36,293 bases of DNA, from assembly GCA_022795805.1 (NCBI GenBank), contig JAAWHK010000018.1, positions 1-36,293 of the forward strand, given 5' to 3'. This document shows, piece after piece, positions 6,683-15,944 of the stretch (position 1 is its first letter; every line of letters starts with the position of its first letter). The translations under genes and the position numbers were made by a program. This DNA is from Hungatella sp. (lineage in GTDB: Bacteria; Bacillota; Clostridia; Lachnospirales; Lachnospiraceae). The notes beneath the pieces were generated by a model. It saw only the letters and a list, made by a program, of their open reading frames with translations. It was not told the DNA's origin and ran no database searches.

Positions 6683-7243
6683 ATGGATACTTGTACGGAT
6701 TGCCTGGAGGGCAGATATAAGGAATACTGGGAGAGGGCCGCGGCCTTTCACGGACACGTCTGCGGCGGCCTTGCCATCGGGTTTAAGGCGGCCGTGTACG
6801 CCATAGAGCTGCTGGAGGTGACATTTTCTCAGGACGAGGAGGTGGTGTGCATCGCGGAGAACGACGCCTGCGGGGTGGATGCCATTCAGTCTGTTTTGGG
6901 ATGCAGCATAGGAAAGGGCAACCTGCTGTTTCATATGACAGGGAAGCAGGCGTTTTCGTTTTATAACAGGAAGACCGGGAAGGCGGTGCGGCTGTATTTG
7001 AAAGCCAGAGCGCCACAGGGGCTGAAACGGGAGGATTCCTGCCGGTTTTATCTGACATGCGGTTTTGAGGATATGTATGCGGTTTCAGAGCCCAAAACAG
7101 CCGTTCCGGAGAGGGCGCGGCTTTTTAAGTCAGTACCCTGCGCCCGGTGCGGGGAGATTACGGCGGAGAGCATGGTGCGTGTGGAGGACGGGGAGATGGT
7201 CTGTCCGGACTGCTTCGGCAGATATGACAGGTTTGCGGTGTAA
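6683..7243 (+). CDS. FmdE-family protein (formylmethanofuran dehydrogenase subunit E-like)
   Basis: A 186-residue protein. The N-terminal part has the FmdE hallmarks: FHGHVCGGLAIGF near residues 23-35 and ENDACGVDAIQ followed by GCSIGKGN. The C-terminus is a small zinc ribbon with CARCGE and CPDC pairs. FmdE was named from a molybdenum enzyme operon in methanogens. In bacteria that make no methane, its relatives are found beside molybdenum or tungsten genes and FecB/FecCD-type transporters, and the exact biochemical role is unknown. It lies 21 bases after the ATPase gene and is almost certainly in the same operon. No terminator was seen after it. Confidence 0.88.
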   Translation: MDTCTDCLEGRYKEYWERAAAFHGHVCGGLAIGFKAAVYAIELLEVTFSQDEEVVCIAENDACGVDAIQSVLGCSIGKGNLLFHMTGKQAFSFYNRKTGKAVRLYLKARAPQGLKREDSCRFYLTCGFEDMYAVSEPKTAVPERARLFKSVPCARCGEITAESMVRVEDGEMVCPDCFGRYDRFAV

Positions 7244-7298: not shown

Positions 7299-7307
7299 TG
7301 ATATGAT
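7299..7307 (+). promoter_or_regulatory. Extended -10 promoter candidate for the SWIM/MoxR/VWA operon
   Basis: TGATATGAT at 7299-7307 is an extended -10 element (TGn plus TATGAT). The matching -35 position (TGGCTC around 7279) is poor, which fits an extended -10 promoter. The site is 55 bases before the SWIM gene start and sits in the only sizeable gap upstream of the operon. Confidence 0.5.
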
Positions 7308-7361
7308 AAAAACAGGATTATCCGTCGGTTTACGGGCGGAAAGGAAAGGAGAGGGAGAGAT

Positions 7362-8816
7362 ATGAGAGCGGTGAAGGAGCAGGAGATCACCATGGCGGCC
7401 CCCAACTTAAATGCTGTGGCCAATGCCAGAAAGATCTCCTCCACAGGGGGATTTGTGGTCCGGAAACGATCCGCGGACGACACGTTCTACATGGGAGAGT
7501 GCAAGGGGAGCGGAAAGAATAATTACGTGGTGTCGGCGGATTACATAGACGATGCGTCCCCCGTGTTCAGGTGCAGCTGCCCCAGCAGGCAGTTTCCCTG
7601 CAAGCACAGTCTGGCCCTGCTTTTTGAGATGGCGGCCGAAAAAGAGTTTGAGATCTGTGAGATCCCCCGGGATATCCTGGACAAGAGGGAGAAGAAGGAG
7701 GCCAGGGAGGCGAAGAAGCAGGCGGGAGACGTAAAAAAGCCGGCTTCGGAGAGAAGCGCGAAAGCGGCCAAAGCGGCCAAGGCCAAGAAGATCCGAAAGC
7801 AGCTGGAGGGGCTGGCGCTGTTAAAGCAGCTGACGGACCAGCTGATGAACTGGGGCCTGGCGTCCATGGGAGGCGGGTCTCTTTTGAATTACCGGAATCT
7901 GGCAAAGCAGCTGGGCGACTACTACCTGCCCGGGCCTCTGGTGTATTTAAACCGGCTGATCCTGGAGATGGAGAAATACCAGAAAGACCAGAACCCGGCT
8001 CATTACAGCCGGTGCGTGGAGATCTTAAAGAAACTGCGGGCCCTGGAGAAGAAGGCGGTTGTATATCTGAATGACAAGCTTGAGACGGACAGCCCGGAAG
8101 CGGACGACGATGAGCTGTATGAGGAGCTGGGGGGCATCTGGAAGCTGGAACAGCTAAACGGGCTGGGACTAAAAAAGGAGAACGCCAGGCTTTTGCAGCT
8201 GTCCTTCCAGGTGGACTACGACCAGGCCAGGAAGGAGTATATGGATCTGGCCTATTGGGTGGAGCTGGACACGGGAGAGATCTGCCATACATGCAATTAC
8301 CGGCCGGTGAAAGCCCTGAAATACGTCCGGCAGGAGGATTCCTGCTTTGGCGTGATGACAGTGCCGGTGCTGAACTACTACCCGGGTCATGGTGACCGGA
8401 GAGTCAGGTGGAGCGGCGGGACCCTTAATGATGCCGGGGAGGATGTGTACCGGGAAGTCATGAAAAAGGCATTTCCCGATCTTCTGTCGGCCTCCAAGGA
8501 GGTGAAAAACCACATTAAAAATATTCTGGCAGACGATTTCTGCCCGGTGCTGGTCAGCTTTAAAGAGATCGGAACCGTGACGGGAAAAGCAGGGGCCTGC
8601 CTTGCGGTCATGGACCGGGCGGGCAGCCGGATGGAGATGAGAAGCCGGGAGCCGTGGCAGGATACGGCCTCCATGGTGCCGCTTCTGCCGGATTCCTCAT
8701 GGCTGCAGGGAGGCGTCCTGTTTGGACTCATGTACTATGACCCGGATAAGAGGCAGATGTGCATCCATCCCTGCAGCATCGTCACGGGGCAGGGGATCAT
8801 AAGACTGATGTACTAG
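7362..8816 (+). CDS. SWIM zinc-finger protein (first gene of MoxR/DUF5682/VWA operon)
   Basis: A 484-residue protein with a SWIM zinc-binding motif: Cys71-x-Cys73, six residues, Cys80-x-His82. SWIM domains bind nucleic acid or protein in other families. A lysine- and alanine-rich linker (about residues 107-150) follows, and then a long mostly alpha-helical region ending in a beta-rich C-terminus. ATG at 7362 is preceded by GGAGAGGGAGAG; a second in-frame ATG lies at 7392. It begins a tight run with a helical-repeat protein, MoxR ATPase, DUF5682 and VWA genes. SWIM proteins with these partners occur together in other bacteria to my knowledge, without an assigned function. Confidence 0.85.
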   Translation: MRAVKEQEITMAAPNLNAVANARKISSTGGFVVRKRSADDTFYMGECKGSGKNNYVVSADYIDDASPVFRCSCPSRQFPCKHSLALLFEMAAEKEFEICEIPRDILDKREKKEAREAKKQAGDVKKPASERSAKAAKAAKAKKIRKQLEGLALLKQLTDQLMNWGLASMGGGSLLNYRNLAKQLGDYYLPGPLVYLNRLILEMEKYQKDQNPAHYSRCVEILKKLRALEKKAVVYLNDKLETDSPEADDDELYEELGGIWKLEQLNGLGLKKENARLLQLSFQVDYDQARKEYMDLAYWVELDTGEICHTCNYRPVKALKYVRQEDSCFGVMTVPVLNYYPGHGDRRVRWSGGTLNDAGEDVYREVMKKAFPDLLSASKEVKNHIKNILADDFCPVLVSFKEIGTVTGKAGACLAVMDRAGSRMEMRSREPWQDTASMVPLLPDSSWLQGGVLFGLMYYDPDKRQMCIHPCSIVTGQGIIRLMY

Positions 8817-8828
8817 GAGGGGGAGACT

Positions 8829-10727
8829 ATGGATCTTAGCGTACTGTATGGACTGAGGGACAGGCTGGAGGCGGCAGCCGTGGCCGGTGTGGGCCTGATC
8901 GGGGAAGATTTCCGGTTGAAGAGGGCGGTTGAGCAGATGGAGCCCCTGGCCAAGGCCTCCCCGGTGTTTAAGAAAATCTGGCAGATGGGGTGTGGGATGC
9001 TGTCTGCGGACTGTGAGGACAGAGGCGGCGCTCTGCTGGATACGTTAGGGCTGGTGGACGCGGTTTTGTGCACCCAGGGCGGATTATTAAAGGAGGGGGA
9101 GTGGGAGCCTCTTCAGAGCGGACGGGGGACGGGGATTGCAGGCGGCCAGATTCCTTACAGCCGGATGGCGCCGGTGCTGGAAGCGTTTCGGGGGACCGGA
9201 GGCGGAAGATACGGGGTGCTCCGTGACGCCCGCAAGGCGGATCCACAGCTGTTTTCGGACTACCGCATCAAAGGTCTTATGGTGAGGGCTCTGGGAGACA
9301 GTTACGGCGAGCTGGCGGACATGGCGGCGGAGTGGCTGAAAGAGGAGGGGCGGGAGATCGTCCCGCTCCTGAAGCAGGACTTTGACCCTGAGGGAAAGCA
9401 GGAGATGGCCCGGCGCATCCAGGTCATGGAGGCTGTCATGGGCAGCGCGGAGAACGGATTCTATGTGGAAGTGCTGAAAAAGGCGAAAAAGCCGGTGCGG
9501 GAAGCAGCGATCCGTGCCCTCAGACATGACCAGAGCAATGAAAAGCTGCTTCTTGACCTGGTAAAGTCGGAGAAGGGCAATGCCAGGGAGGCCGCTTATT
9601 TCTCCCTGGCATCCATGGAGGGCGAGGAGGCCGCCGGGTACTTCAGAAAGCAGATGGACAAGAATCCGGGCAAATGGGGGGCGTATCTGGCAAATTCACC
9701 GGTCATGTGGGCCTCCGACCTGATCGCGGACCATATAAGCCGGTGGCTGGACACCTATGACGTGTCGGACATTCTGTGGAAGGATTTAAAGAAGGAGGAT
9801 CAGACAACCCTGCTGGATCTGCTGAACCGGGCGGAGGGAAAAGGTTCTCCCAGCATGTGCGCCTGCTATGAGCGGCTGTACCAGGTGGTGCCCTGGAAGG
9901 TGGCTGAGGTGTTAAAAAACTCCCTCATGAGGCAGGATGATCCTGTTTCCCCTGAACTTCGCCAGGTGGCTGAGGACATGTACGGGGCTCACGGGGATGC
10001 GTTTCTGGGCTGTGTGTTCTGGGCTGCGCTGATGGATGATAAGCCGGAACCGCTTTTTCAGCGGTTCGGCGGTTATGTAAAGCCGGAGGGGAGTGCGGAA
10101 AGCGCAGGGAAGAAAGGGGATCCCAGGGAGATCCTTGAGATCTTCTCCCATATCAAATATGAAGAGAGTCTGGGCAAATACGTGGTGTACCGGTCCGCGG
10201 CCAACGGATACACGGGCTATACGGATCCGGCCAAAATCCTGGACCACGGGCTGGATCTTCGGTGGTACGAATTTTTGCTGGGGAACAAGAACCGCTTTAA
10301 CATTCAGTGGAAGAAGGCTTACAGTTATTACGGAGGCCACTCCAACGGATTTGACGCCATGCTGGAGGGGCTGTTCAGGCCGGATATAGAGACCGTTAAG
10401 GAGGCGTACGGAAGGTATTTTTATTGGAGCGCCAGGTACCGGGGAACAGAGGCCGCGGACATCCGGATGCTGAGGCGGTGCGGCTGGACCGATTATAAGG
10501 GGCTTTTGGCCCATGTGGGCAGGAAGGATAAGAGCCAGATCATCTACAAGGTGCGCCAGGTTTTGGAGCAGCTGCCCATGACCAATGAGGAGATGGCAGC
10601 CGAGCTGGAAGGGCTTGTGGGGGAGCTGGGAAAGAAGGCAGTCAACGGGATCGGAATTCTGGAGAGATGGGTGGATGAGCTGAAGCGCGGTGCCGCGGTG
10701 GATGAACTGAAACAGAATTACCGGTGA
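8829..10727 (+). CDS. Large alpha-helical, HEAT-like repeat protein of unknown function
   Basis: A 632-residue soluble protein with no signal peptide or membrane segment. It is strongly helical. The stretch around residues 215-270 (VREAAIRALRHD, then AREAAYFSLASM) has the spacing of HEAT/armadillo-like repeats, suggesting a curved scaffold that binds a partner. The C-terminal third is aromatic-rich (YEFLLGNKNRFNIQWKKAY) and I do not recognise it. The gene is 12 bases after the SWIM gene with GGAGGGGGAGA as ribosome site, and its stop overlaps a possible GTG start of the MoxR gene. Its position suggests it is the scaffold subunit of the five-gene system, which is inference. Confidence 0.75.
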   Translation: MDLSVLYGLRDRLEAAAVAGVGLIGEDFRLKRAVEQMEPLAKASPVFKKIWQMGCGMLSADCEDRGGALLDTLGLVDAVLCTQGGLLKEGEWEPLQSGRGTGIAGGQIPYSRMAPVLEAFRGTGGGRYGVLRDARKADPQLFSDYRIKGLMVRALGDSYGELADMAAEWLKEEGREIVPLLKQDFDPEGKQEMARRIQVMEAVMGSAENGFYVEVLKKAKKPVREAAIRALRHDQSNEKLLLDLVKSEKGNAREAAYFSLASMEGEEAAGYFRKQMDKNPGKWGAYLANSPVMWASDLIADHISRWLDTYDVSDILWKDLKKEDQTTLLDLLNRAEGKGSPSMCACYERLYQVVPWKVAEVLKNSLMRQDDPVSPELRQVAEDMYGAHGDAFLGCVFWAALMDDKPEPLFQRFGGYVKPEGSAESAGKKGDPREILEIFSHIKYEESLGKYVVYRSAANGYTGYTDPAKILDHGLDLRWYEFLLGNKNRFNIQWKKAYSYYGGHSNGFDAMLEGLFRPDIETVKEAYGRYFYWSARYRGTEAADIRMLRRCGWTDYKGLLAHVGRKDKSQIIYKVRQVLEQLPMTNEEMAAELEGLVGELGKKAVNGIGILERWVDELKRGAAVDELKQNYR

Positions 10728-10744
10728 ATGGGAGGAAGAACAAG

Positions 10745-11833
10745 ATGAATGACAATCATGTGCAGAGACTGCCTGCGGAGCAGTTGTTTCAGGAAGAGAT
10801 TGATGCTCTGATTGCGGCAGAAAAGAACCCTGTCCCCCAAGGCTGGAGGATGTCCCCAAAATCGGTGTTAACCTACATCTGCGGCGGCAGATGCGGGGAC
10901 AGGGATATTACCCCCAAGTATATTGGCAGCAGGCGGCTGGTGGAGATCGCCATCTCCACCCTGGTGACCGACCGGGCGCTTCTTTTGATCGGGGAGCCGG
11001 GAACGGCCAAGTCCTGGCTGTCGGAGCACCTGGCGGCGGCCGTCAACGGCAATTCCACCAGGGTGATACAGGGAACGGCAGGGACCACGGAGGAGCAGAT
11101 CAAGTATTCCTGGAACTACGCCATGCTGATCGCGTCCGGGCCCTCCAGGGAGGCCATGATTCCCAGCCCGGTGTACAGGGCCATGGAGCAGGGGGCCATT
11201 GCGCGGGTGGAGGAGATCTCCCGGTGCGCTTCGGAGGTTCAGGACGCGCTGATCTCCATTTTGTCCGAGAAGAGAATCTCCGTGCCGGAGCTGGGGATTG
11301 AGGTTCCCGCAAAGAAGGGGTTCTCCGTGATCGCGACGGCCAACACCAGGGATAAGGGCGTCAATGAAATGTCGGCGGCTTTAAAGAGGAGATTTAATAT
11401 CGTGGTTCTTCCGGCTCCTGAAAGCCTGGAAGCGGAGATGGAGATCGTCAAATCCCGGATCACCCAGCTGTCCGGAAACCTGGATCTCAACGCCAAACTT
11501 CCTGAGGCGGAGGTGGTGGAAAAGGTGTGCACCATTTTCCGGGAACTGCGAAAAGGGGCGACACTGGACGGAAAACAGAAACTGAAAACCACGTCGGGGG
11601 TGCTGTCCACGGCGGAGGCTATCTCCCTTTTAGCCAACAGCATGGCTCTGGCGGGAAGTTTCGGCGACGGGGTCATCACGGATTACGACCTGGCGGCAGG
11701 ACTTCAGGGGGCCGTGGTGAAGGAGGATTCCAAAGACCGGAACGTATGGGAAGAATATCTGGAGAATATTATGAAAAAGCGAGGATCCAGGTGGCTATCC
11801 CTGTATGAAGAGTGTAAGGAGCTGAATCGCTGA
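10745..11833 (+). CDS. MoxR-family AAA+ ATPase
   Basis: A 362-residue AAA+ chaperone-like ATPase. Visible parts are Walker A GEPGTAKS (residues 83-90, the form typical of MoxR proteins), a Walker B region with acidic residues in ARVEEIS, sensor 1 in ATANTRD, and an arginine-finger-like KRRF in the sequence ALKRRFNIVVLP. MoxR ATPases usually pair with VWA proteins to remodel or insert a metal into a client. A GTG at 10724 is in frame, but ATG at 10745 has GGGAGG nine bases upstream and is preferred. The gene overlaps the DUF5682 start by one base. Confidence 0.9.
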   Translation: MNDNHVQRLPAEQLFQEEIDALIAAEKNPVPQGWRMSPKSVLTYICGGRCGDRDITPKYIGSRRLVEIAISTLVTDRALLLIGEPGTAKSWLSEHLAAAVNGNSTRVIQGTAGTTEEQIKYSWNYAMLIASGPSREAMIPSPVYRAMEQGAIARVEEISRCASEVQDALISILSEKRISVPELGIEVPAKKGFSVIATANTRDKGVNEMSAALKRRFNIVVLPAPESLEAEMEIVKSRITQLSGNLDLNAKLPEAEVVEKVCTIFRELRKGATLDGKQKLKTTSGVLSTAEAISLLANSMALAGSFGDGVITDYDLAAGLQGAVVKEDSKDRNVWEEYLENIMKKRGSRWLSLYEECKELNR

Positions 11834-14187
11834 TGGAGAGACAGCCTTTTGTATTTGGAATCCGCCATCTCTCCCCGGCGGGAGCTTACTACGTCAGGGA
11901 GTTTCTGGATGAGGTGAAACCGGAGATGGTGCTCATCGAAGGGCCGTCGGATTTCACGGATCTTATGGGGGAGCTGGCGGGGGAGGATGTGAAACCGCCT
12001 GTGGCAGTGATGGCCTACACCAGACAGCTGCCTGTGAGGACCATCCTCTATCCTTTCGCGGAGTATTCTCCGGAATATCAGGCGCTTTTGTGGGCAAAGG
12101 AGCACGGATGCCCCTGCAGGTTCTGCGATCTGCCGTCGGATGTTTTTCTGGGGATTCGGGCACGGCAGGAGGAAAAACGGCAGGAGGACGGTGACGGCAG
12201 CGGCAGTCAGAGCGATGAAGCAGAGGGACAGGGCGGTGACGGCTCAGGTGCGAAGGACAGCGGGGATGACCACGGCGCTGCCCGCCGCCCCTTTGACGTC
12301 TATGAAGCCCTGGATCGACAGTCTGAGGACGGGGACCATGAAACTTTCTGGGAGCGGACCATCGAGCAGTGCGCAGACAGCAGGGGATATCGGACGGGGG
12401 CCTGGGAGTTCGGCCGTGCCTTGAGGGAGCTGAGCCGGAAAGACAGGGACGAGGACGCCGAAAATCTTACGCGGGAGGCCTATATGCGCCGTGTCATAGG
12501 GCAGGTCCTTTGTGAAGGGATACAGGCAGACCGGATTGCGGTGATTGCGGGAGCCTATCACGGTGAGGGAATCCTGGGAGGCGGCCGGGCCATGAGCGAC
12601 GAGGAATTTGCGGCGCTGCCCCGTCTTGAATCCCTCAGGACTCTGATGCCCTATTCCTATTACCGCCTGTCCCAGCGCTCCGGCTACGGAGCAGGCAACC
12701 GTGCGCCGGCTTACTATGAGTATCTGTGGCAGGGACTTAAAAGGAAAGAGGCAGATTACGGGGCGCGCAGGTATTTAAGCGGACTGGGAGCATATCAGAG
12801 GGCAAACGGCGGTGTGGCATCCGCCGCGCAGGTTATGGAAGCGGCCCGTCTGGCCAGGGCTCTGGCACAGCTTCACGGAAGCAGGATTCCCACACTGAAA
12901 GATCTGCGGGACGGGGCGGTGACCTGTATGGGACAGGGAGCGTTTTCGGAGCTGGCTCTGGCGGTTGCGGACACGGAGATCGGGACGAAGATCGGAAGCC
13001 TTCCCCAGGGAGTCAGCCAGACCTCCATTCAGGCGGATTTTTATGAGAATTTGAGAGAGCTTAGGCTGGAGAAGTACAAGTCCGTGAAAGCCATGGAGCT
13101 GGATCTGGATCTTCGGGAGAATCTCAGGGTCAAGTCAAAGAAAGCGGCGTTTTTGGATCTGGAGCGGTCCTTTTTCCTTCACAGGCTCCGGGTCCTGGAC
13201 ATCCGTTTTGCCGCCGCGCAGGCCGTGAAGCAGGACAATGCCACCTGGGCAGAGAGGTGGGTTCTCCAGTGGACGCCCGAGGCGGAGATTCAGATCGTGG
13301 AGGCCGTGCTGAAAGGGGATACGGTGAGGCAGGCTGCGGCATTCCAGCTGAAGGCCAAGACTGACGCGGGCACTGGCATCAGCGAGCTGGCAAAGGTGGT
13401 GTCGGAGGCGTTTTACTGCGGCATGCCTCTTGCCCTTCACTCCGCTTTGGAAGCTTTGCAGGAGCTGGCGGTGGATGCGGTATCTGTTGTCCAGCTTGCG
13501 GACACGGCAGAAGAACTGTCCGTGGTGATCCGGTACGGAGATATCCGGAAGCTGGATCGGACCCCGCTGATTCCCATCGTGTCCCAGCTGTTTTTGCGGG
13601 CGTGCCTGATTCTGCCCGGGGAGTGCGCCTGCGACGATCAGGCGGCCACGGCTATGATTCCGGCCATAGGCAAGCTTTGCCAGGTAGGGACGGCCCATGA
13701 TTTTGTGGATTATCAGCGATTTTTGACAGTGCTTACGGAGATTGCCTCCAGGGATGACTTAAATACCCGTCTTTCGGGAGCCGCGGCGGCCATTCTTCTG
13801 GAGCAGGGCAGTATGGACAGCACGGAGCTGGGCCGGGAGGTGGAGAGACGGCTGTCAAAGGGCATTCCCGCGGAACTGGGAGCCGGATGGTTTGCGGGGC
13901 TTTCCTCCAGGAATCATTACGGGCTGATAGCCAGGCTGACGCTGTGGGAGAAGTTAAGCGATTATCTGGATACCCTGGACGGGGAGGAGTTTAAGAGGGC
14001 GCTTCTGTTTCTCAGGAGGGCGTTTGCGGACTTTACCTCCGGGGAGAAGGACCAGATTGCGGAGAATCTGGGGGAGATATGGCAGGTGAACCCGGCACAG
14101 GTCAGCGAGATACTCAACGACAGCCTGACAGAGGATGCCATGGAGTTTCTGGAGGGACTGGAAGAGTTTGATTTCGGGGATATATAG
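11833..14187 (+). CDS. DUF5682 family protein with TraB/ChaN-like N-terminal domain
   Basis: A 784-residue protein. The first 105 residues have the signature of the TraB/PrgY/ChaN/erythromycin-esterase-like fold: FGIRHLSPAGA with His12, then VLIEGP with Glu36, then a YPFAEYSPE segment. VIAGAYHGEGI with His243 closes the domain. These His and Glu residues are candidate metal or catalytic ligands by analogy. Between them lies an acidic, glycine- and serine-rich insert at about residues 112-153, probably disordered. The remaining 500 residues are helical and unfamiliar. ATG at 11833 overlaps the MoxR stop (TGATG), so translation is coupled. DUF5682 is my family call from the MoxR/VWA context and these motifs. 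Activity is unproven. Confidence 0.82.
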   Translation: MERQPFVFGIRHLSPAGAYYVREFLDEVKPEMVLIEGPSDFTDLMGELAGEDVKPPVAVMAYTRQLPVRTILYPFAEYSPEYQALLWAKEHGCPCRFCDLPSDVFLGIRARQEEKRQEDGDGSGSQSDEAEGQGGDGSGAKDSGDDHGAARRPFDVYEALDRQSEDGDHETFWERTIEQCADSRGYRTGAWEFGRALRELSRKDRDEDAENLTREAYMRRVIGQVLCEGIQADRIAVIAGAYHGEGILGGGRAMSDEEFAALPRLESLRTLMPYSYYRLSQRSGYGAGNRAPAYYEYLWQGLKRKEADYGARRYLSGLGAYQRANGGVASAAQVMEAARLARALAQLHGSRIPTLKDLRDGAVTCMGQGAFSELALAVADTEIGTKIGSLPQGVSQTSIQADFYENLRELRLEKYKSVKAMELDLDLRENLRVKSKKAAFLDLERSFFLHRLRVLDIRFAAAQAVKQDNATWAERWVLQWTPEAEIQIVEAVLKGDTVRQAAAFQLKAKTDAGTGISELAKVVSEAFYCGMPLALHSALEALQELAVDAVSVVQLADTAEELSVVIRYGDIRKLDRTPLIPIVSQLFLRACLILPGECACDDQAATAMIPAIGKLCQVGTAHDFVDYQRFLTVLTEIASRDDLNTRLSGAAAAILLEQGSMDSTELGREVERRLSKGIPAELGAGWFAGLSSRNHYGLIARLTLWEKLSDYLDTLDGEEFKRALLFLRRAFADFTSGEKDQIAENLGEIWQVNPAQVSEILNDSLTEDAMEFLEGLEEFDFGDI

Positions 14188-14228
14188 CGCCTCATTTGCA
14201 AATACATCATATGGAAGGATCGACAGCT

Positions 14229-15407
14229 ATGGATATGAGAGAGAGGATGACCCGGTGGCGTCTGATTCTGGGTCAGGAAAGTCATGATGAGTTTGAGAAA
14301 CTGGGCGGCGAAACGCTGGAACTCTCCGCCGATCAGTGGATGATGGACCAGGCTCTGGCGGCTATCTACAACAGCGCCGCAAACGGCGGCTTCGGCGGAC
14401 AGGGCGCCGGGCGGGGGCCCTCCAATCCTCAGGTTACCAGGTGGCTGGGAGACGTGAGGACTCTGTTTGACAAGGACCTGGTTAAGATCGTCCAGGCCGA
14501 CGCCATGGAGCGGTGCGGGTTAAAGCAGCTGATCTTTGAACCGGAACTTCTGGAGAATCTCGAGCCGGATGTGAACCTGGCCGCCACTATCCTTCTTTTG
14601 AAGGATCAGGTGCCCAAAAGGAGCAAGGAAAGCGTCCGGGAGTTTATGAAGAAAATCGTGGAGGAGATCAATAAACTGCTGGAGAGCGATATCAGACGGG
14701 CGGTAACGGCGGCGGTGAACCGGAAGCGCCATTCCCCCATCCCCTCTGCGTCCGCCCTGGATTTTCAGACCACCATCCGGAGGGGAATTAAAAATTACAG
14801 GCCGGAGTTGAAGAAGATCATTCCGGAACACTACTATTTCTTTGACAGGACCTCCACCACGGCGGCCAACAAGTACACCATCATCCTGGATGTGGACCAG
14901 AGCGGTTCCATGGGGGAGTCGGTGATCTATTCCTCCATTATGAGCTGTATCCTGGCCAGCATGGCTGCGGTGAAGACCCGGATCGTGGCCTTTGACACGG
15001 AGGTGGTGGATCTGACGGAGAAATGTGAAGATCCGGTGGATCTCCTGTTCGGCTTCCAGCTGGGAGGCGGCACGGACATCAACAAGTCGGTGGCCTACTG
15101 CAGCCAGTTTATAGAGAACCCTAAGAAGACGCTGTTCTTTCTGGTCAGCGATCTGATGGAAGGCGGAAACCGGGCCGCGCTTACCAGAAGGCTGTCCCGG
15201 TTAAAGGAGGACGGAGTCACGGCAGTGTGCCTTCTGGCCATTGCCGACGGCGGAAAGCCTTACTATGACGCCCAGATGGCGGGAAAGATTGCGGCCATGG
15301 GGATTCCCTGCTTTGCCTGCAGCCCCCAGAAACTTCCGGAACTTCTGGAGAGAGCTTTTAAGGGGCAGGATCTTTCGGCGCTGGCAGGGGAGGAGATCAT
15401 GCAGTGA
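14229..15407 (+). CDS. VWA domain protein with intact MIDAS
   Basis: A 392-residue protein, last gene of the five-gene operon. The N-terminal half is helical and begins MRERMTRWRLILGQES. The C-terminal half is a von Willebrand A domain. Its metal-ion-dependent adhesion site is complete: Asp223-x-Ser225-x-Ser227 (DQSGSMGES), the threonine in GGGTDIN and the aspartate in VSDLMEGG. VWA proteins partner MoxR ATPases and bind clients through the metal. The frame is open from TTG 14196, with other ATGs at 14211 and 14235. ATG at 14229 is chosen because GGAAGGA lies nine bases upstream. No clear terminator follows, only GC-rich hairpins at 15434-15460. Confidence 0.92.
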   Translation: MDMRERMTRWRLILGQESHDEFEKLGGETLELSADQWMMDQALAAIYNSAANGGFGGQGAGRGPSNPQVTRWLGDVRTLFDKDLVKIVQADAMERCGLKQLIFEPELLENLEPDVNLAATILLLKDQVPKRSKESVREFMKKIVEEINKLLESDIRRAVTAAVNRKRHSPIPSASALDFQTTIRRGIKNYRPELKKIIPEHYYFFDRTSTTAANKYTIILDVDQSGSMGESVIYSSIMSCILASMAAVKTRIVAFDTEVVDLTEKCEDPVDLLFGFQLGGGTDINKSVAYCSQFIENPKKTLFFLVSDLMEGGNRAALTRRLSRLKEDGVTAVCLLAIADGGKPYYDAQMAGKIAAMGIPCFACSPQKLPELLERAFKGQDLSALAGEEIMQ

Positions 15408-15460: not shown

Positions 15461-15539
15461 GAGATGCGCCCCTGGGCAGCGAAGCAGCCCTTGCGGCAGG
15501 GGGCAGGTTATGGGTTACATTGGCTGTGGATGGCTGCGG

Positions 15540-15944
15540 CATAAAAAGTCTGACAAAAATATCAAGGAAGTCTATACAATTGTCCTTATAATGGACCATA
15601 CGCTGCCTGTCGTTTCACCACAGGAGGAGGGAGCGTGTTGGGAGGGGCCGGCCGGTAAACTGGAGGCGTGGCTCACCTTTATCTCGTCTGACAGATCGGG
15701 GGATATTCTGAGGGTCTTTAACACATATCCTGAATTTCGGGAGTTATATAAGGAAGTGTTCGAGTTTCGGTATCAAAAGAAGGAGTTGATCAGTATGTAT
15801 TCAGAGGCTTTGAGGATTCTGGACACCAATACCATTGAGTATATGGCAGAGCAGCAGAGGAAACAGATTCGGAGATTAAATAAAAAGCTGGAGCAGGAAG
15901 TGCGGCGTCTCACTGCGCTGCTGAACGAAAAGCAAGACGCGTGA
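15540..15944 (+). pseudogene. Remnant of PD-(D/E)XK nuclease family transposase (Rpn-like)
   Basis: The open frame 15510-15944 encodes 144 residues. The last 95 residues match the C-terminal region of the abundant clostridial PD-(D/E)XK transposase-nucleases: LEAWLTFIS, then YPEFRELYKEVFEFRYQKKEL and SEALRILDTNTIEYM, ending in a charged coiled coil. Upstream, KNIKEVYTIVLI looks like the family's core beta-strand. The roughly 50-60 residues normally between these two blocks, and the whole catalytic N-terminus, are absent. I read this as an internally deleted, inactive copy. No good ribosome site precedes the first ATG (15510); one at 15591 is possible. It could alternatively be a small expressed protein, but loss of the nuclease core argues against activity. 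Confidence 0.65.

What the first reader, a model, noticed from the sequence alone, without database searches (positions are those of the whole stretch)
7299..15407. Five-gene SWIM / helical-repeat / MoxR / DUF5682 / VWA operon: uncharacterised ATP-driven system
The genes follow each other with overlaps or gaps of 42 bases or less, all on one strand, behind an extended -10 promoter. Seen: a SWIM CxC...CxH motif, HEAT-like repeats, an intact MoxR Walker A, a TraB/ChaN-like N-terminus and an intact VWA MIDAS. Known: MoxR and VWA proteins form chaperone pairs that remodel or metallate a client. Inference: the SWIM protein recognises nucleic acid or protein, the HEAT protein scaffolds, MoxR and VWA remodel, and DUF5682 is the enzymatic effector. 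This could be a conflict or defence system, a stress-quality-control machine or a maturation factor. No effector toxin is obvious.
Basis: partly seen in the sequence, partly recalled or inferred. Interest (0 to 1): 0.8.

Follow-up and report, generated by a model that had tools for sequence, protein, structure and literature searches.

The report
Conserved five-gene motor-and-hydrolase operon
This is a five-gene bacterial operon, related to the unstudied yehLMPQ genes of laboratory E. coli, that seems to join an ATP-driven protein-remodelling pair to a probable hydrolase and a predicted nucleic-acid-binding protein; what it does is unproven but can be tested in E. coli.

Summary
Five tightly packed + strand genes (7362-15407) encode a SWIM protein, a HEAT-repeat protein, a MoxR AAA+ ATPase, DUF5682 and a CoxE-type VWA protein, with intact motifs. 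Of 97 loci examined, 70 hold all five and 61 hold exactly these five in this order. MoxR, DUF5682 and VWA are homologous to E. coli YehL, YehM and YehP (40, 26, 32% identity), so this is a YehL-subfamily MoxR system. My paper searches found no function.

New anatomy: DUF5682's N-terminus matches the TraB/TIKI superfamily (hhalign 9e-6, far above decoys). The SWIM protein's model matches tandem OB folds (HIN-200, RPA). HEAT evolves fastest and is sometimes duplicated.

A lead: in 7 loci, six of them shown to fall in one Lachnospiraceae clade, ClpS and ClpA directly follow VWA, then Aat in six. One genome per genus, DUF5682 co-occurs with ClpS (p=0.0015) and weakly with Aat (p=0.04), uncorrected.

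Best reading (0.35): a nucleic-acid-associated MoxR-VWA machine that remodels protein clients for, or activates, a TraB/TIKI-like hydrolase, probably a peptidase. A defence role gained no support.

The parts
7362..8816 (+). SWIM protein (484 aa): N-terminal SWIM zinc module, helical middle, C-terminal part predicted as tandem OB fold
7572..7607 (+). SWIM motif CSCPSRQFPCKH (C71-H82)
   Evidence: C71, C73, C80, H82 in 64 of 64
8154..8813 (+). predicted tandem OB region, about residues 265-484 (limits placed by me from the strand pattern; Foldseek gave no query range)
8829..10727 (+). HEAT-repeat protein (632 aa), fastest-evolving component
10724..11833 (+). MoxR AAA+ ATPase of YehL type (369 aa)
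10991..11014 (+). Walker A GEPGTAKS
11210..11215 (+). Walker B pair, Glu-Glu
   Evidence: 79 of 79 (role of these residues by position, recalled)
11833..14187 (+). DUF5682 protein (784 aa): TraB/TIKI-like N-domain and helical solenoid
11833..12732 (+). TraB/TIKI-like domain, residues 1-300; H12, E36, R214, H243 invariant
14196..15407 (+). VWA_CoxE protein (403 aa from TTG; ATG at 14229 likelier by homologues)

Best explanation
A cytosolic, nucleic-acid-associated protein-remodelling machine. Shown: the five genes form a conserved module; MoxR and VWA keep the motif residues that I checked; DUF5682 has a TraB/TIKI-like N-domain with invariant His and Glu residues on a helical solenoid; the SWIM protein couples a zinc module to a predicted tandem OB fold; the HEAT protein is fast-evolving and sometimes present in two or three copies. 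Inferred: the SWIM-OB protein binds single-stranded or otherwise unusual nucleic acid, HEAT protein(s) select or dock clients, the MoxR ring with its VWA partner uses ATP to remodel that client or to activate DUF5682, and DUF5682 hydrolyses it, most likely as a metal-dependent peptidase. Fragments would then be cleared by cellular proteases, in one clade by ClpS-ClpA, with Aat, encoded directly downstream.
For: All five in 70 of 97 loci, 61 exact; SWIM-DUF5691-AAA-DUF5682 order in Rhizobium, Deinococcus and Methylosinus plasmids, with VWA next in the first two. Homology to YehL, YehP, YehM. DUF5682 N-domain vs TraB: hhalign score 47.9, E 8.9e-6; 54 control comparisons score at most 19.6. SWIM protein: AlphaFold2 pLDDT 92.4; all 31 PDB matches at E<=0.001 are HIN-200-type DNA-sensor structures (some by recall, not title) or, once, RPA; several of the best viral-library matches are LEF-3. 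R347, R349, K379 invariant and W350 nearly so in 64. HEAT median identity to the window 32%, MoxR 78%. ClpS-ClpA directly downstream in 7 of 97 loci. One genome per genus without the window genome: ClpS in 7 of 27 genomes with DUF5682 and 15 of 271 without, p=0.0015.
Against: No experiment. Foldseek with the whole DUF5682 model gave nothing at E<=0.001, so the TIKI assignment rests on profile, motifs and strand order. The TraB rows were picked partly by requiring a G[ST]xH motif, which may help that motif align. The superfamily also holds esterases and a haem binder (the last recalled), so peptidase is a guess. Low TM-scores for the OB match (0.17-0.45); the OB feature could not be extended by sequence to Rhizobium or E. 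coli SWIM proteins. Six of the seven ClpS-ClpA-linked loci were placed on a tree and one origin suffices; 90 of 97 loci show no such linkage, some because the contig ends. Aat was found in 23 of 80 named-locus genomes. Genome size was not controlled.
Confidence: 0.35

Rival explanations
1. A maturation chaperone of the CoxD-CoxE or NorQ-NorD kind: MoxR and VWA open a client enzyme for metal or cofactor insertion. DUF5682's TIKI-like domain binds metal or haem (as ChaN does, recalled) rather than cutting, and SWIM and HEAT recognise the client.
For: VWA_CoxE 1.1e-42; MoxR-VWA pairs are tied to metal insertion and target remodelling (PMC13036017 and PMC9976466, start of abstract in listing; PMC7159879, passage); an FmdE-domain gene lies just upstream in the window.
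Against: No constant client gene beside the module: flank clusters are shared by few loci. The predicted OB fold of the SWIM protein is not expected. FmdE is upstream of SWIM in the window and L023 only.
Confidence: 0.25
2. A nucleic-acid damage or stress response module: SWIM-OB (or WGR-DUF4132 in the E. coli type) senses broken or single-stranded nucleic acid and the MoxR-VWA-DUF5682 part removes or remodels proteins bound there.
For: Predicted tandem OB; WGR and DUF4132 genes upstream of the E. coli module; in Deinococcus radiodurans a DUF4132 gene and a WGR gene rise on DdrO depletion, and MolR is said to belong to the LexA regulon (PMC8533742, passage). RtcB within one operon (L080).
Against: Those Deinococcus genes were not shown to lie in this module; WGR and DUF4132 are absent from the window's operon; RtcB inside the operon was seen in one locus.
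Confidence: 0.2
3. An anti-phage or other conflict system, akin to the vWA-MoxR ternary systems.
For: MoxR-VWA core; patchy distribution (16 of 99 relatives; 28 of 299 in the family); the bpMoxR model of the ternary systems passes its cut-off on the window MoxR (28.9 against 27 bits), but over 55 residues only; plasmid copies.
Against: No VMAP, iSTAND or effector domain; PADLOC empty but for mad8 at E 0.0054; no near-versus-far PADLOC excess, although single near-flank matches to Wadjet, AbiLi and others exist; none in viral contigs with a single-protein query.
Confidence: 0.1

Closest known systems
E. coli K-12 yehL-yehM-yehP-yehQ (YehL subfamily of MoxR ATPases)
   Same: MoxR 40%, VWA 32%, DUF5682 26% identity; a SWIM gene in the same operon; N-terminal SWIM module shared with an alignment that includes YehQ (hhalign 9.7e-16)
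   Different: SWIM gene last, not first; WGR and DUF4132 genes upstream instead of a HEAT gene; HEAT protein not detectably related to YehI; full-length SWIM proteins not alike by BLAST. No function found
SWIM-DUF5691-AAA-DUF5682-VWA loci of Rhizobium and Deinococcus, and Methylosinus without an annotated VWA
   Same: Same order, DUF5691 in the HEAT position
   Different: DUF5691 not detectably homologous to the HEAT protein (hhalign E 0.12); C-terminal half of the SWIM protein not alike
NorQ-NorD, CoxD-CoxE, RavA-ViaA MoxR-VWA pairs
   Same: AAA+ and VWA MIDAS pair encoded together; VWA_CoxE family
   Different: Here DUF5682 was found in all 97 loci, SWIM in 80 and HEAT in 83; Walker B is Glu-Glu
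vWA-MoxR ternary conflict systems
   Same: MoxR and vWA in one operon with further components (PMC7159879, passages); partial bpMoxR match
   Different: None of their third components or effectors seen in the five proteins
TraB/TIKI/Ere/ChaN superfamily
   Same: GxxH, Glu, RxxxM-type and GxxH motifs in register with TraB/YbaP
   Different: Fused to a long helical solenoid and set in an AAA+ operon; Arg-His where the Ere-type motif has Glu-x-His (motif from PMC6254334, passages)

Membership tests
MoxR AAA+ ATPase, YehL subfamily | AAA_5 domain with Walker A, sensor Asn and Arg finger | tested here: met
   AAA_5 3.2e-40; G90, G93, K96, S97, N207, R222, R223 in 79 of 79; the roles of N207 and R222/R223 are recalled
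MoxR AAA+ ATPase, YehL subfamily | Full-length similarity to YehL | tested here: met
   40% identity over 358 columns
AAA+ ATPases in general | Asp-Glu Walker B | tested here: not met
   Glu-Glu in 79 of 79 and in YehL: a deviation shared with the subfamily, not a reason to leave it
CoxE-type VWA protein | VWA_CoxE domain with full MIDAS | tested here: met
   1.1e-42; five MIDAS residues in 70 of 70
TraB/TIKI superfamily | Profile similarity above controls | tested here: met
   hhalign 47.9 vs at most 19.6 in 54 control comparisons
TraB/TIKI superfamily | Conserved His and Glu residues | tested here: met
   H12, E36, H243 in 72 of 72 and in 7 of 7 of A1 with YehM
TraB/TIKI superfamily | Fold match to a solved member | tested here: inconclusive
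   full-length Foldseek: 0 matches at E<=0.001, top list mostly repeat proteins; a domain-only model was not made
TraB/TIKI superfamily | Hydrolase activity | not testable with these tools
   needs biochemistry
SWIM zinc finger proteins | CxCx(n)CxH | tested here: met
   Pfam; 64 of 64
Tandem OB (HIN-200/RPA-like) fold | Structural match to solved members | tested here: met
   Foldseek E 6.2e-5, probability 1.00, TM-scores low; a fold statement, no homology claimed
vWA-MoxR ternary conflict systems | VMAP, iSTAND or other named third component and effector | tested here: not met
   no such Pfam domain in the five proteins; bpMoxR passes its cut-off over 55 residues only
Known anti-phage systems (PADLOC) | Convincing match to a PADLOC model | tested here: not met
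   only mad8 at E 0.0054
MADS defence (MadB ATPase) | NCBIfam cut-off of 475 bits | tested here: not met
   48.7 bits

The most novel reading that the evidence does not exclude
DUF5682/YehM is an ATP-gated endopeptidase that makes new N-termini: nucleic-acid-bound clients chosen by the SWIM-OB and HEAT proteins are cut, and the fragments become N-degron substrates for ClpS-ClpA, with Aat adding Leu or Phe where needed. It would then be one source of the many E. coli proteins that bear N-degrons.
Probability: 0.1. Interest if true: 0.9.

Novelty: new variant of a known kind. Interest (0 to 1): 0.6.

Why it matters
One of seven named MoxR subfamilies (YehL; PMC3893208, passage) has no function that my searches could find, although its genes are in E. 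coli K-12. The anatomy found here (TraB/TIKI-like domain, predicted tandem OB fold, duplicating HEAT adaptor, occasional coupling to ClpS-ClpA-Aat) turns that into specific, cheap tests in a laboratory strain. If DUF5682 is a motor-driven peptidase, it would be an AAA+ proteolytic system outside the Clp, Lon, FtsH and HslUV set (recalled), and a candidate source of bacterial N-degrons, which are said to form by endoproteolytic processing or by transferase (PMC8138137, passage).

Tried and rejected
Defence-island hypothesis: set aside for lack of support. The single phage-record match is an unverified faecal clone; fetched, not annotated.

HEAT protein as homologue of DUF5691 or of YehI/DUF4132: tested, not supported.

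Tandem OB in E. coli or Rhizobium-type SWIM proteins: no sequence support.

Co-occurrence among 99 relatives (Aat in 11 of 16 genomes with DUF5682 and 3 of 83 without, p about 1e-8; ClpS 13 of 16 and 12 of 83, p about 3e-7) is not used as statistics, because the rpoB tree puts the nine DUF5682+Aat genomes of the window's genus that are on it in one clade (G017 gave no rpoB match, and G002 and G041 are poorly placed). The sample of 299 genomes, almost one per genus, is used instead: without the window genome Aat 3 of 27 and 6 of 271 (p=0.039), ClpS 7 of 27 and 15 of 271 (p=0.0015); two tests, uncorrected; split DUF5682 matches counted as presence.

Genomes of the 80 named loci: Aat in 16 of 40 and 7 of 40, so most lack it; their completeness is not told, and three of them repeat relatives.

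Fold search with full-length DUF5682: uninformative. PDB sequence profile of DUF5682: only designed repeat proteins. SWIM protein by sequence: best PDB E-value 0.45. VWA: none at 0.01.

Papers: PMC7159879, PMC10910872, PMC8533742, PMC3893208, PMC6254334, PMC8138137 and PMC12258705 were seen as passages only; PMC13036017 and PMC9976466 as starts of abstracts in a listing; the 2013 N-degradome paper only as a reference in two of these (not held).
Full report
OBSERVATION. Five + strand genes lie head to tail: SWIM 7362-8816 (484 aa), HEAT 8829-10727 (632), MoxR 10724-11833 (369), DUF5682 11833-14187 (784), VWA 14196-15407 (403). Pfam gives SWIM, HEAT_2 (just under its cut-off), AAA_5, DUF5682 and VWA_CoxE. 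A family profile of the HEAT protein matches alpha-Rep HEAT structures at about 1e-17. The promoter part of the claim is weak.

CONSERVATION. With 15 stretches of unnamed relatives, E. coli K-12 and the window, 97 loci were annotated with iterated profiles: 70 of 97 hold all five families and 61 of 97 hold exactly SWIM-HEAT-MoxR-DUF5682-VWA in order; 60 of the 80 named loci hold all five. The loci are not independent (at least L019, L021 and L022 repeat L034, L033 and L035), and several lack genes because the contig ends. By record title they come from Lachnospiraceae, Oscillospiraceae, Paenibacillus, Treponema, Verrucomicrobiia, Rhodopirellula and others. In the two Rhodopirellula loci and in E. 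coli no SWIM or HEAT of this type was found. HEAT is present in two or more copies in L053, L066, L071, L075, L076, L086 and L088 (7 of 97; L045 has only a split match). Median identity to the window falls MoxR 78, VWA 70, DUF5682 55, SWIM 47, HEAT 32% (78, 69, 71, 63 and 76 sequences). Distribution is patchy: DUF5682 in 16 of 99 relatives, 28 of 299 genomes of the family, and over the cut-off in 5 of 299 in the phylum.

TWO ARCHITECTURES. Rhizobium, Deinococcus and Methylosinus plasmids carry SWIM-DUF5691-AAA-DUF5682, with VWA next in the first two; Hymenobacter has DUF5691-AAA-DUF5682-VWA with one small gene inserted. E. coli K-12, an E. coli plasmid and Iodobacter have DUF4132 genes, then MoxR-DUF5682-VWA-SWIM, with a WGR gene in E. 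coli. Streptomyces has a DUF4132 gene and another gene before AAA-DUF5682. The window's MoxR, VWA and DUF5682 are homologous to YehL, YehP and YehM, and the SWIM N-module is shared. The window system therefore belongs to the YehL subfamily, one of seven MoxR subfamilies (PMC3893208, passage).

DUF5682 IS TRAB/TIKI-LIKE. R11, H12, E36, D99, R214, E215, M218, G240, H243 and Y274 are invariant (72 of 72; 7 of 7 in A1 with YehM). A profile of residues 1-300 was aligned by hhalign to a TraB alignment: YbaP plus 25 Bacillota proteins, taken from 30 fetched loci by requiring an ORF across the locus centre with a G[ST]xH motif, which 25 had. E 8.9e-6, score 47.9; GIRH/GSIH, IEGP/VEAD, REAYM/RNLAW and GAYH/GALH are in register. 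Fifty-four controls (four other families and 22 flank-gene clusters, each also reversed, plus two reversed profiles) score at most 19.6. The AlphaFold2 model (pLDDT 86.8) alternates strands and helices in the N-domain, then is helical. Foldseek with the full model gave no match at E<=0.001. TIKI-superfamily enzymes are said to use conserved His and Glu residues (PMC6254334, passages). Peptidase, esterase or binder is not shown.

THE SWIM PROTEIN HAS A PREDICTED TANDEM OB FOLD. The model is confident (pLDDT 92.4, pTM 0.73). Of 31 PDB matches at E<=0.001, 30 are HIN-200 or cytosolic-DNA-sensor structures (for those whose titles do not say HIN, by recall) and one is RPA. In the viral library one unnamed match has E<=0.001, and several just above it are LEF-3, a single-stranded DNA-binding protein by recall. 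TM-scores are low and the query range is not printed; I place the fold in residues about 265-484 from the strand pattern. By sequence it could not be extended to the E. coli or Rhizobium SWIM proteins.

LINK TO THE N-DEGRON PATHWAY. In 7 of 97 loci (L051, L053, L056, L057, L058, L066, L071) the genes straight after VWA, same strand, gaps of at most 61 nt, encode ClpS and a Clp ATPase, and in six Aat follows (the L056 contig ends in the Clp gene). Examples: ClpS and Leu_Phe_trans by Pfam; Aat over its NCBIfam cut-off; the Clp ATPases fit ClpA best, at 966-983 bits, just under its 993-bit cut-off; ClpS fits its models under their cut-offs. On the DUF5682 tree six of these loci (L066 was not included) form a clade with the unlinked L059 and L069, so one origin suffices. 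The window genome has ClpS-ClpA and Aat on other contigs. Co-occurrence among relatives is strong but pseudo-replicated. In the sample of almost one genome per genus, without the window genome, ClpS is in 7 of 27 genomes with DUF5682 and 15 of 271 without (p=0.0015), Aat in 3 of 27 and 6 of 271 (p=0.039). Aat is in 23 of the 80 named-locus genomes. I treat this as a lead, not proof.

NOT A DEFENCE ISLAND. No convincing PADLOC match. Of 281 near-flank and 199 far-flank ORFs, 100 each were sampled: 23 and 21 PADLOC families were hit. Near-flank matches include single Wadjet, AbiLi and DolB models; far-flank ones include Wadjet, Zorya and Gabija models. A single-protein query found no DUF5682 relative in viral contigs.

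MECHANISM. Inference at the stated confidence: SWIM-OB holds nucleic acid, HEAT docks clients, MoxR-VWA remodels, DUF5682 cuts. Fast evolution and duplication of HEAT suit a client adaptor. Rivals (maturation chaperone, damage response, defence) are listed with their tests. MoxR's Walker B is Glu-Glu in 79 of 79; slow or switch-like ATP use is possible (inference).

NOVELTY. The families and E. coli genes are named already; no function turned up (open-licence PubMed Central only). I know of no earlier report of the domain assignments, the two-architecture comparison or the ClpS-ClpA-Aat linkage, but did not search for each separately.

Noticed in passing
L080:3499-9491: Between DUF5682 and VWA lie an RtcB RNA ligase (Pfam 1.5e-62), an ankyrin-like protein (by eye) and an unknown protein, with a paralogue of the last after VWA.
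   Followed up: partly
L142:6971-8188 (window genome, contig C117): An RtcB-family gene (NCBIfam, under the cut-offs) lies about 4.7 kb from Aat in the window's own genome.
   Followed up: partly
L076, L082, L085, L089, L093, L110, L111: The gap between DUF5682 and VWA (between MoxR and DUF5682 in L093) is a recurrent insertion site: SUKH domain in L110; by eye PIN plus antitoxin-like (L089), PEBP-like (L076, L085), type I restriction N-terminus-like (L082), GNAT-like (L111).
   Followed up: partly
window 10724-11833: Walker B reads Glu-Glu instead of Asp-Glu, invariant in 79 of 79 sequences.
   Followed up: partly
window 15510-15944: A 144-aa ORF is related to a 449-aa protein in L026 with a PDDEXK_2 transposase-type nuclease domain: probably a transposon remnant.
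   Followed up: partly
window 6683-7243: An FmdE-domain gene with a possible zinc-ribbon tail sits just upstream; the same cluster is upstream of SWIM in L023.
   Followed up: no
L130 (MT835988.1): A GenBank 'Bacteriophage sp.' faecal clone encodes a DUF5682 protein 53% identical to the window's; it may be bacterial DNA filed as phage.
   Followed up: no
L127 (NZ_CP084075.1): A 2.1-Mb Fusobacterium record filed as plasmid, probably a chromosome, carries DUF5682 at 54% identity.
   Followed up: no
L022, L025, L035: A 566-aa protein that looks like a mobile-type AAA-ATPase (by eye) lies between HEAT and MoxR.
   Followed up: no
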